From: Actinomycetota bacterium
GTDB lineage: Bacteria > Actinomycetota > Actinomycetes > JACCUZ01
NCBI GenBank assembly: GCA_030841025.1
Contig: JAVEDJ010000179.1
Coordinates: forward strand, 1 to 35,584
Direction: 5' to 3'
Length of the DNA stretch: 35,584 nt
Under the pieces are notes generated by a model. It saw nothing but the letters and a program-made list of their open reading frames with translations. It had not been told where the DNA came from and ran no database searches. Shown here piece by piece: positions 28,292 through 33,073 of the stretch. Within the stretch, counting starts at the first letter, position 1; the number at the start of each line of letters is the position of its first letter. The position numbers were made by a program, and so were the translations under genes.

Positions 28292-29106
28292 CCGAGCAGC
28301 CCAGCACCGTCTCGGTCGAGCCGGACCCCGACCGCCGGTCGGGCCGGCTGCTGGTCATCGACGGCACCCCGCAGTCGCACGTCGACCTCGCGGACCCCAC
28401 CTACCTCTCGTTCGAGTACGTCCGGCGCCTGGCACATGTCGTCGACCTCGTCGCGGAACCCGGCAAGCCACTGACCGTCGTGCACCTGGGGGCCGGGGGA
28501 CTCACCCTCGCGCGGTACGTCGCCGCCACGCGCCCCGGGTCGCGCCAGCGGGCGGTGGAGGTCTCGGCCGAGGTGGCGCAGCTCGTGCGGCAGGAGCTGC
28601 CGTTGCCGCGCGGCACCACGGTGCCGGTGCAGGTGGCCGACGCACGGGAGGCAGTGGGCCGGATGCGTGCGGACAGCGCCGACGTGGTTGTGCTCGACGT
28701 GTTCGCGGGCGCGCGGACGCCGGCGCACCTCACGTCGACCGAGCTGCTGTACGACGTCGCGCGGCTGCTGGTCGCGGGCGGTGTGTTCGCGGCCAACGTC
28801 GCCGACGGGCCGCCGCTGCGGTACGCCCGCAGCCAGGTCGCCGGGGCGACCGAGGTGTTCCCGCACGTGGCCGTGGCGGCCGATCCGGGAGTCTGGCGTG
28901 GGCGCCGGTTCGGCAACCTGGTGCTCGTGGGCTCGGACCAGCCGCTGCCGGTGGCGGCGCTGGCGCGGCGCTGTGCCGGCGACCCGCTGCCGGCCCGGGT
29001 CACCGCCGGCGCCGACCTGCACCGGTTCGTGGCCGGGGCGCCCACGATCACCGATGCGACAGCGCAGGACTCGCCCGCTCCGCCGCCCGAGCTGTTCCGC
29101 CGCTGA
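28288..29106 (+). CDS. spermidine-synthase-like (SAM-methyltransferase fold) protein, start codon unclear
   Basis: A Rossmann-fold protein of the spermidine-synthase-like superfamily common in actinobacteria. It shows [30 protein letters not shown], the nucleotide-binding [21 protein letters not shown], then [16 protein letters not shown] and [11 protein letters not shown]. The polyamine-specific residues were not checked, so the substrate is unknown. The ORF-track start at GTG 28480 would remove the first 64 residues, including conserved motifs. The coding frame clearly runs back to the hisB stop, where a GTGA overlap would be expected but the sequence reads GTAA. There is no ATG, GTG or TTG between; CTG 28348 is possible. 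AAGGG lies 7 bases before the GTA. Coordinates mark the coding frame, not a proven start. Confidence 0.72.
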
Positions 29107-30395: not shown

Positions 30396-31121
30396 ATGCC
30401 CGAGCTCGTCCTGCTACCCGCCGTCGACGTCGCCGACGGGAGAGCGGTCCGGCTGGTCCAGGGCGCCGCGGGCACCGAGACGTCCTACGGTGACCCGCTC
30501 GCGGCAGCCGAGGCGTGGCAGTCCGGCGGGGCCGAGTGGATCCACCTGGTCGACCTCGACGCCGCATTCGGCCGCGGCGAGAACCGCCAGCTGCTGGCGG
30601 ACGTCGTCGGCCGTCTCGACGTGCAGGTCGAGATGTCCGGTGGCATCCGCGACGACGCGACCCTCGAGGCGGCGCTGGCCACGGGCTGCGCCCGGGTCAA
30701 CATCGGCACCGCCGCTCTCGAGGATCCCGAGTGGTGCGCCAAGGCCATCGCGCGGCACGGTGAGCGCATCGCCATCGGCCTGGACGTGCGCGGGACGACG
30801 CTGGCGGCCCGCGGCTGGACCCGGGAGGGCGGCGAGCTGTTCGAGGTGCTCGGCCGGCTGGACTCCGAGGGCTGTGCACGCTACGTCGTCACCGACGTCG
30901 GTCGGGACGGCACCATGACCGGGCCCAACCTCGACCTGCTGCGCGAGGTGTGCGTCGCGACCGACCGGCCCGTCGTCGCGTCCGGGGGGGTGTCCAGCCT
31001 CGAGGACCTGCGGGCCATCGCCGCCCTCGTGCCCGAAGGGGTGGAGGGCGCCATCGTCGGGAAGGCGTTGTACGCAGGGGCCTTCACGCTCGAGGACGCG
31101 CTGGCTGCGGTGCGCGCATGA
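30396..31121 (+). CDS. priA: phosphoribosyl isomerase A (HisA, possibly HisA/TrpF bifunctional)
   Basis: TIM-barrel Amadori isomerase acting on ProFAR, and in many actinobacteria also on PRA of the tryptophan pathway. The 241-aa protein has [18 protein letters not shown] with acid-base D11, [31 protein letters not shown] (first phosphate site), [29 protein letters not shown] with D167, and [13 protein letters not shown] (second phosphate site). TrpF activity cannot be read from the sequence; the proximity of trpE is suggestive only. ATG 30396 abuts the previous stop. Its stop overlaps the RidA-like ATG. Confidence 0.94.
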
Positions 31122-31522
31122 CGCGCAAGGTGTCCAGCGGCGCTCCGTGGGAGGCCGTCGTCGGCTACAGCCGCGCGGTCGCGGCCGGCGACCACGTGTG
31201 GGTCACCGGCTGCACCTCGATCGTCGACGGCGAGGTCGTCCACGAGGGCGACATGGAGGCGCAGACAGCCCAGGCCATCCGCAACGTCGAGTCGGCGCTC
31301 GCCCAGCTCGGGGCCGCGCTCACCGACGTCGTACGCACCCGCCTGTTCGTGCTCGACATCTCCCGCTGGGAGGAGGTCGGCCGCGCGCACGGCGCGGCCT
31401 TCGGCGACGTCATGCCTGCCACGTCGCTGCTGCAGATCTCCGCCCTCATCGACCCGCGGATGCTGGTCGAGGTGGAGGCGGTCGCGTACAAGCCCGGCGT
31501 CGGGGCCGAGGTGTCGCAGTGA
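31118..31522 (+). CDS. RidA/YjgF-family protein inside the his operon
   Basis: A 134-aa chorismate-mutase-like trimeric fold. Characterised RidA enzymes hydrolyse reactive enamine/imine intermediates made by PLP enzymes. Motifs are [52 protein letters not shown] and the C-terminal MLVEVEAVA, where canonical RidA has the catalytic arginine in VEIEAIA-type context (R105-like residue seen as DPRMLVE). Canonical RidA ends IEIEA. ATG 31118 overlaps the priA stop, and its TGA overlaps the hisF GTG. The ORF-track start at 30950 shadows priA. The true subfamily was not resolved. Confidence 0.9.
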
Positions 31523-32289
31523 CTGTGGCGGTCCGGGTCATCCCGTGCCTTGACGTGGACGCCGGCCGGGTGGTCAAGGGGGTCAACTTCACCGACCTGC
31601 GCGACGCCGGTGACCCCGTGGAGATGGCGCGCGTCTACGACGCCGAAGGCGCCGACGAGCTGGTGTTCCTGGACATCACCGCCTCGAGCGGCGCTCGGGA
31701 GACGACGTACGACGTCGTCCGGCGCACCGCCGAGCAGGTGTTCATCCCCCTGACGGTGGGCGGCGGGGTGCGCAGCCCCGAGGACGTCGACCGGCTGCTG
31801 CGCGCGGGCGCCGACAAGGTGGGGGTCAACACCGCCGCGGTCGCCCGGCCCGAGCTGGTGGCCGAGATCGCCGCCCGCTTCGGTGCGCAGGTGCTGGTGC
31901 TGTCGGTCGACGCCCGCCGGTGCGCCCGCGGGACCGTCACCGACTCGGGCTACGAGGTCACGACCCACGGTGGGCGGCGCGGCACGGGCATCGACGCGGT
32001 CGCCTGGGCGGCCCGGTGCGCGGCGATGGGCGCGGGCGAGATCCTGCTCAACTCCATGGACGCGGACGGCACGCGCGCCGGCTACGACCTCGAGATGGTG
32101 CGTGCCGTGCGCGCCGCGGTGACGGTGCCGGTCGTGGCCAGCGGTGGGGCCGGTGCCCTCGAGGACTTCGCACCCGCGGTCGAGGCCGGTGCTGACGCCG
32201 TGCTCGCGGCCAGCGTGTTCCACTTCGGACAGTTTCGGATCGGCGAGGTCAAGGACTCGTTGCGGGCGTCCGGTCACCCCGTCCGCTGA
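31519..32289 (+). CDS. hisF: imidazole glycerol phosphate synthase, cyclase subunit
   Basis: TIM barrel that uses HisH-derived ammonia to form imidazole glycerol phosphate and AICAR. The 256-aa protein begins at GTG 31519, overlapping the RidA-like stop, with GAGGTG upstream. Catalytic D12 ([15 protein letters not shown]) and D131 (LSVDARR) are present, together with [34 protein letters not shown] and the second phosphate site [11 protein letters not shown]. It is the last gene of hisH-priA-hisF and is followed at once by palindromic repeats. Confidence 0.97.
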
Positions 32290-32406
32290 CCAGCGACCTT
32301 TGGCCGGTGACACGCCGGCGTGTCGCAACCGAAGGTCGCTGGCCACCCGGGCGAGCGACCTTTGGCCGGTGACACGCCGGCGTGTCGCAACCGAAGGTCG
32401 CTGGCC
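32290..32406. repeat. two identical 53-bp nested-palindrome repeats (62-bp period)
   Basis: Copies at 32292-32344 and 32354-32406 are identical, separated by ACCCGGGCG. Each has outer arms AGCGACCTTTGG and CCGAAGGTCGCT (one G-U pair) enclosing the perfect 16-bp palindrome GACACGCCGGCGTGTC. The pair lies between convergent hisF and the TIGR03085 gene, ending 7 bases before that gene's stop. Likely a REP-like dispersed element or bidirectional terminator. Confidence 0.9.
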
Positions 32407-32413
32407 GGACGGG

Positions 32414-33073
32414 TCAGACGTCGAGGGAGGCCTGCGCCAGCGCCTCGAGGGCCTCGGGCGATCCGGTGACCTCGACCCGGGCGTGGTCGCGACGCCCGAA
32501 CAGGTAGAGCAACAGCTCGGCCGGCTCACCGGTCAACGTCGCCGTCGGCTCGCCCTCGGATGCGACGTGCGTCTCGCCGTCGGGTCGCGCGAGGGTGACA
32601 CCGAAGTCGGCGCCGCGGAACGACAGGCGCGCCCGGCCCTTGACCGCCGACCACAGCGCGCCCTGGACGGCCACGGGCAGCTCACGCGGCTCCCAGCCCG
32701 GCTGCGCGCGGCGCACGTCCTCGTGGTGCACGAAGAACTCCGTCGCGTTCAGCAACCGGTCCGCGCCGGGCAGCGCAAACCCCGACCACCAGGGCGGGCC
32801 GTCACGCACCAGGCGGACCACCTCGTCGTACGGCCGCTGGGCGTAGGTCGCCTGCACGGATGCCAGATACCCCGCCATCGGTGTGAACGTGATGCCGGCC
32901 GTCGCGTCCATCCGACGTTCCCGTACGGCGAGGTGGGCGGCGAGGTCGCGGGTCAGCCACCCCGTGCAGAGCGTGGGCGCGTCGGGCCCGGCCTGCAGGA
33001 GCAGGTCGGCGAGGGCGCGCCGCTCGTACTGCGCGATGGACGGGTGCGAATCGGTCGTGCCTGGATCGGCCAT
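32414..33073 (-). CDS. TIGR03085-family (DinB/mycothiol maleylpyruvate isomerase-like) metal-binding protein
   Basis: A 219-aa helical protein of the actinobacterial TIGR03085 family, distantly related to mycothiol-dependent enzymes. It shows ERRALADLLLQAGPDAPTLCTGWLTRDLAAHLAVRERRMDATAGI as consecutive motifs, where the His of AAHLAVRE is a probable metal ligand, then FFVHHEDVRRAQPGW with two more histidines. The C-terminal SCP2-like part ends PAELLLYLFGRRDHARVEVTG. The substrate is unknown. ATG 33073 has no SD but has TACGAT 6 nt upstream. It lies 26 bases after the MinD-like gene, so it may also be read from upstream. Confidence 0.85.
   Translation of the reverse strand: MADPGTTDSHPSIAQYERRALADLLLQAGPDAPTLCTGWLTRDLAAHLAVRERRMDATAGITFTPMAGYLASVQATYAQRPYDEVVRLVRDGPPWWSGFALPGADRLLNATEFFVHHEDVRRAQPGWEPRELPVAVQGALWSAVKGRARLSFRGADFGVTLARPDGETHVASEGEPTATLTGEPAELLLYLFGRRDHARVEVTGSPEALEALAQASLDV

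What the first reader, a model, noticed from the sequence alone, without database searches (positions are those of the whole stretch)
32290..32406. Tandem identical 53-bp nested palindromes between convergent genes
Two perfect copies with a 9-bp spacer, each an outer 12-14-bp inverted repeat around the perfect palindrome GACACGCCGGCGTGTC. Perfect identity of both copies suggests recent duplication or gene conversion, as in REP/BIME elements. The location, just after hisF and up to the tail of the opposing gene, fits a two-way transcription barrier.
Basis: seen in the sequence. Interest (0 to 1): 0.55.

Follow-up and report, generated by a model that had tools for sequence, protein, structure and literature searches.

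The report
REP-like palindromes behind actinobacterial genes
The two hairpin repeats after hisF belong to a family of about 35 similar palindromes scattered through this actinobacterial genome, nearly always just behind genes, and related genera carry the same design with different outer arms; it looks like an undescribed actinobacterial counterpart of REP elements, and its function is inferred from position, not shown.

Summary
The unit is dispersed: about 35 copies in the host's 4.09-Mb draft genome (32 complete, in 27 loci). The same architecture, with genus-specific outer arms around a shared inner CRACACGCC/GGCGTGTYG, occurs in most other genera of the family (Sporichthyaceae-like). A congener lacks it, and at compared sites, hisF included, has element-free spacers. 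Over 72 loci in seven genomes, elements are enriched between convergent genes (30 seen, 9 expected), depleted between divergent genes (5 seen, 22 expected), and hug the upstream stop codon (median 24 nt). No U-tract follows the hairpins. No RAYT/Y1 transposase, GTAG/CGTC tag or autonomous element with these ends was found. Best reading: a REP-like, RAYT-less palindrome family that turns over fast, is tolerated or favoured at 3' ends, and gives mRNAs of either strand a very stable 3' hairpin. 'REP/BIME-like' holds by analogy, not by membership. The 'two-way barrier' fits position and symmetry but is untested; the missing U-tract argues against classical intrinsic termination.

The parts
31519..32289 (+). 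hisF; the palindrome starts 2 nt after its stop codon
   Evidence: TIGR00735, 357 bits over a cut-off of 294.55
32292..32344 (.). palindrome copy 1 (53 bp; 57-nt model match 32288-32344)
   Evidence: identical to copy 2; model R1 60.7 bits on +
32309..32324 (.). inner perfect 16-bp palindrome of copy 1
   Evidence: nine exact sites in the genome
32345..32353 (.). 9-bp spacer ACCCGGGCG
32354..32406 (.). palindrome copy 2 (53 bp; 57-nt model match 32350-32406)
   Evidence: model R1 59.8 bits on +
32371..32386 (.). inner perfect 16-bp palindrome of copy 2
32414..33073 (-). convergent gene, TIGR03085 family metal-binding protein; its stop lies 7 nt from copy 2
   Evidence: TIGR03085, 239 bits over a cut-off of 138.85

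Best explanation
The two units are members of a dispersed, extragenic, two-module palindrome family of Sporichthyaceae-like actinobacteria. SHOWN: about 35 copies in this genome; an outer arm specific to each genus and an inner core shared between genera, with a poorly conserved segment between them; presence/absence turnover between congeners; strong association with stop codons and convergent spacers; no U-tract. INFERRED: the family spreads within genomes as a non-autonomous REP-like element, moved by an unidentified enzyme or by recombination or gene conversion. Copies survive mainly right behind stop codons, where they do not break promoters. Transcribed from either side, each copy gives the mRNA a very stable 3' hairpin, which probably blocks 3'-to-5' exonucleases after Rho-dependent or read-through transcription and may pause polymerase. 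Between hisF and the opposing gene the doubled unit would give both mRNAs a hairpin end and limit antisense read-through.
For: Genome copies. Related families in other genera. Element-free counterpart sites in congener G001, and at hisF also in G003. Context of 72 loci: convergent 30, co-directional 37, divergent 5 against 8.7/41.9/21.5 expected by length, p 5e-15; 33 of 37 co-directional copies closer to the upstream stop; in G000, 14 of 25 loci within 10 nt of a stop. Very stable folds on both strands. The same positional habit is reported for REPs (PMC3733652).
Against: No movement, transcript or 3' end has been observed. The gene caller is crude and the null comes from one genome. Avoidance of promoters alone would give part of the positional bias. 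The middle segments do not pair in G004 and G005, which fits a protein-binding DNA site at least as well as an RNA stem. Some gene ends carry elements in two genera, which may mean old, retained sites rather than recent spread.
Confidence: 0.55

Rival explanations
1. Native two-way transcription terminators: U-less ('I-shaped') hairpin terminators kept by selection at gene ends, homogenised in sequence by gene conversion.
For: Hairpin within about 60 nt of a stop at 59 of 67 loci, enrichment between convergent genes, near-symmetric stem on both strands. I-shaped terminators are described for mycobacteria within 50 bp of stops (review PMC12288462). A few gene ends carry elements in two genera.
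Against: No U-tract (mean 1.7 T per 12 nt, at most 4), and the titles of papers cited in that review show that termination without a U-tract is disputed for mycobacterial polymerase. Congener G001 has no copies and no other repeated hairpin family in 1.0 Mb. Only about 35 copies for some thousands of genes.
Confidence: 0.2
2. DNA sites for a protein (gyrase-, nucleoid- or recombinase-type), placed where convergent transcription piles up supercoils; the two conserved modules are the contacts and the variable middle is a spacer.
For: Outer and inner modules nearly invariant, middle unconserved and in G004/G005 less paired than random arm pairs. Arms change as a set in each genus, as a site co-evolving with its protein would.
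Against: No candidate protein identified; complete absence from the congener argues against a housekeeping role.
Confidence: 0.15
3. The elements are internally deleted ends (MITEs) or palindromic landing sites of an insertion sequence such as an IS30-family element.
For: On a G004 contig a complete IS30-family element (NF033563, 293 bits) sits at the centre of a family palindrome directly behind a second hisF. REP palindromes are known targets of several IS families (PMC1525189), and E. coli IS30 uses a nearly palindromic hot spot (PMC9333248).
Against: One instance only. The IS30 ends (GGGTTCAG..GTTGCAAC) do not resemble the palindrome arms, and the IS30 fragments found in G000/G006 carry no palindrome halves. 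Of 54 outer-arm 12-mers in G000, 52 lie in palindromes and 2 are lone arms, so no IS with these terminal repeats was found. This supports a landing site, not an origin.
Confidence: 0.08

Closest known systems
REP elements / BIMEs (GTAG- and CGTC-tagged, RAYT-associated)
   Same: Short extragenic palindromes, multi-copy, sometimes paired, mostly between convergent or co-directional genes and often <20 bp from a stop (PMC3733652), fast turnover
   Different: No GTAG or CGTC end tag, no Y1/RAYT gene, unit of 49-75 bp with two conserved modules; PMC3733652 lists no actinobacterial GTAG or CGTC family
I-shaped (U-less) intrinsic terminators of mycobacteria
   Same: Stable G+C-rich hairpin close behind stop codons without U-tract
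   Different: These are one homologous dispersed sequence family absent from a congener; termination not tested
MITEs
   Same: Small, palindromic, non-coding, multi-copy, probably non-autonomous
   Different: No target-site duplication recognisable and no autonomous partner with the same ends found

Membership tests
REP (GTAG/CGTC, RAYT-associated) | many dispersed extragenic palindromes in one genome | tested here: met
   32 complete copies in 27 loci plus contig-end fragments
REP (GTAG/CGTC, RAYT-associated) | GTAG or CGTC tetranucleotide at one end | tested here: not met
   unit ends are AGCGACC/GGTCGCT with GACC/GG flanks
REP (GTAG/CGTC, RAYT-associated) | RAYT (Y1_Tnp, PF01797) in the genome; defining for the GTAG type, not for CGTC | tested here: not met
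   0 of 8 family genomes, positive controls ring; the genomes are drafts
REP (GTAG/CGTC, RAYT-associated) | unit of 20-40 bp | tested here: not met
   49-50 bp between outer arms in G000, 74-75 bp in G004/G005
REP (GTAG/CGTC, RAYT-associated) | location at gene 3' ends, few between divergent genes | tested here: met
   30/37/5 of 72 loci, p 5e-15
canonical Rho-independent terminator | stable hairpin behind a stop codon | tested here: met
canonical Rho-independent terminator | U-tract after the hairpin | tested here: not met
   mean 1.7 T per 12 nt in G000, no excess
canonical Rho-independent terminator | RNA 3' ends at the site | not testable with these tools
   no RNA data
MITE | autonomous element with the same terminal repeats | tested here: not met
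   52 of 54 arm 12-mers lie in palindromes, two lone arms
MITE | target-site duplication | tested here: inconclusive
   counterpart spacers in G001 are too diverged to read the joints
known RNA family (Rfam 15) | match to a curated model | tested here: not met
   no match in the window at gathering threshold

The most novel reading that the evidence does not exclude
A previously undescribed superfamily of two-module palindromes in actinobacteria: an inner CRACACGCC/GGCGTGTYG core kept across genera (with a similar core in a genome of another family of the class), while the outer arm is exchanged as a set in each genus and members appear or vanish between congeners. This would imply an unknown trans-acting enzyme or protein that co-evolves with the arms and spreads the elements behind stop codons without a RAYT.
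Probability: 0.35. Interest if true: 0.6.

Novelty: new variant of a known kind. Interest (0 to 1): 0.42.

Why it matters
REP elements are best known from proteobacteria and the GTAG type is tied to RAYT transposases. A family with the same genomic habits but other end signals and no such transposase, in lineages known mostly from metagenomes, gives a natural comparison for whether gene-end palindromes spread as selfish DNA, serve as 3' ends of mRNAs, or both. The congener without any copies is a ready control. Several contigs of this short-read draft end at the hairpin centres, so real copy numbers may be underestimated.

Tried and rejected
Unique local duplication: rejected, dispersed family. 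RAYT/REP membership: rejected. IS terminal repeats or an autonomous partner: not found. Insertion into pre-existing hairpins, tested as complementarity of the flanks: none (own 3.38 against swapped 3.67 pairs, p=0.94). Canonical terminator: no U-tract. A replacement hairpin family in congener G001: none in 1.0 Mb. Phage, plasmid or viral carriage: no matches. Rfam: no match. A strict GTDB pattern scan found nothing; a looser one gave 12 stretches from three MAGs. RNAalifold gave no compensatory changes because the arms are too conserved and the loop register was misaligned; own-arm against swapped-arm pairing gave weak support in G000 (p about 0.01; 0.085 with a stricter control) and the opposite sign in G004.

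Full report
OBSERVATION. The sequence is as described. Two identical 53-bp units at 32292-32344 and 32354-32406 are separated by ACCCGGGCG. Each holds an outer 12-bp inverted repeat with one mismatch and the perfect inner palindrome GACACGCCGGCGTGTC. HisF (TIGR00735) stops at 32289; the convergent TIGR03085-family gene ends at 32414. As RNA, one unit folds at -40 kcal/mol (z -6.6) and the pair at -102 kcal/mol (z -12.8), with similar values for the other strand.

FAMILY IN THE HOST GENOME. The host draft genome (4.09 Mb, 433 contigs) holds 32 complete copies plus six places cut by contig ends. Two of the cut places, C84 and C412, are the two sides of one copy, because both align to one spot in the congener. 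The other copies are mostly 79-93% identical to the window unit, so the 100% identity of the window pair marks a recent local duplication or conversion. Pairs also occur at C37, C217, C100 and C138, 62-72 bp apart. The outer-arm 12-mer AGCGACCTTYGG occurs 54 times, 52 of them in these palindromes; the reversed control is 0. The two other sites are lone arms without a partner, so I found no IS with these ends.

RELATIVES. A covariance model (R1) searched in 60 relatives finds families in other genera of the same family. G004 has about 22 elements with arms GATCGTTCGCGACGTT, G007 has 7 and G006 about 5 with AGCGACCTTG, and G005 has at least 11 with GATCGTTTGCGAC. MAG BWSM_131 has TCTGTGCGACGTT, and G003 has GGTTGGGACGTTG. 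Titles in the GTDB scan name one of these MAGs as a Sporichthyaceae bacterium; that the window belongs to this family is an inference from kinship. The inner CRACACGCC/GGCGTGTYG is shared, most loosely in G006/G007. In 297 genomes of the class the exact core pattern is concentrated in this family (G000 10, G005 8, G004 2); elsewhere it appears as single hits in 17 genomes. One genome of another family (G051) has its own small set of palindromes with a different arm and a similar core: nine arm matches, control 0, none in its congener G095. Whether that set is homologous is open.

PRESENCE AND ABSENCE. The congener G001 has no copy by model or pattern. At hisF, the G001 and G003 genes are separated from the convergent gene by only about 16-19 nt. 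At four further G000 sites (L006, L008, L039, L033/L044) the G001 counterpart lacks the element. In 1.0 Mb of G001 I found 13 long hairpins, none repeated. The parsimonious reading at hisF is gain in the window's lineage. Against pure recency, several gene ends carry elements in two genera: G004 L092/G005 L257 and G004 L104/G005 L252 with both flanking genes, and G004 L098/G006 L119, G004 L099/G003 L260, G000 L009/G007 L109 with one flanking gene. By my own rough estimate one to two such coincidences are expected by chance, so this is suggestive of retained or preferred sites, not proof.

POSITION. With a simple codon-usage gene caller I classified 72 loci from seven genomes: 30 convergent, 37 co-directional, 5 divergent. 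Expectation from G001 is 8.7/41.9/21.5 by intergenic length and 11.2/49.6/11.1 by junction count (p 5e-15 and 5e-9). In co-directional gaps 33 of 37 elements lie closer to the upstream stop (median 24 against 134 nt). Of 67 loci with a gene 3' end, 59 lie within 60 nt of a stop; in G000, 14 of 25 loci lie within 10 nt. This is the distribution reported for REPs (PMC3733652). The caller is crude, the null comes from one genome, and selection against insertion in promoters would give part of the same pattern.

ANATOMY. Outer and inner modules are nearly invariant within G000, G004 and G005; the segment between them is not. In G004 and G005 the two middles of an element match less than random arm pairs do (G004 0.388 against 0.486, P 0.006; G005 P 0.05), so the stem carries an internal loop. 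In G000 pairing is slightly above control (p 0.009, p 0.085). The flanks are not complementary. No U-tract follows: mean 1.7 T per 12 nt in G000, at most 4.

MECHANISM. Shown: a dispersed, fast-turning-over, stop-codon-hugging palindrome family with sequence-specific modules. Inferred: its transcripts end in a very stable hairpin on either strand, which most likely acts as a 3' boundary against exonucleases after Rho-dependent or read-through transcription, as REPs are thought to do, rather than as a classical terminator. U-less termination in mycobacteria is disputed in papers listed by the review PMC12288462, and Streptomyces terminators typically still have 3-4 U (PMC12207403). A DNA-protein role for the two conserved modules is not excluded. 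Elements this close to a stop might also touch the terminating ribosome, as reported for E. coli REPs (cited in PMC12306157). How the family spreads is unknown: no Y1_Tnp gene in eight family genomes, no tagged ends, no autonomous partner.

SIDE FINDING. On a G004 contig the palindrome behind a second hisF copy is split at its centre by a complete IS30-family element. REPs are known IS targets for other IS families (PMC1525189), and E. coli IS30 prefers a nearly palindromic hot spot (PMC9333248). With one case this points to landing sites, not to the origin of the palindromes.

VERDICT. The REP/BIME analogy is right in habits but not in membership. The transcription barrier is plausible and untested. 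The paper searches found no description of this family, but only an open-access library could be searched.

Noticed in passing
L067 (G004:C150) 1-1300: A complete IS30-family element interrupts a family palindrome at its centre, directly behind a hisF gene.
   Followed up: partly
G004:C19 (L059) and G004:C150 (L067): G004 holds two hisF genes (84% and 78% identical to the window's), one with an element of the G005 arm type; the bin may be mixed.
   Followed up: no
L266-L272 (G051): A genome of another family of the class has its own dispersed palindromes with arm GATCATGAGG..TCAGG around a GACACGCC core, absent from its congener G095.
   Followed up: partly
G000 contigs C84, C412, C200, C294, C307, C63: Contig ends fall at the centres of palindromes, so the hairpins probably break the short-read assembly.
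   Followed up: partly
window 28480-29106 (+): A spermidine-synthase-like gene (NF037959) lies between hisB and hisH.
   Followed up: no
window 31118-31522 (+): A RidA-like gene (Rid family, below the curated cut-off of TIGR00004) sits between hisA and hisF.
   Followed up: no
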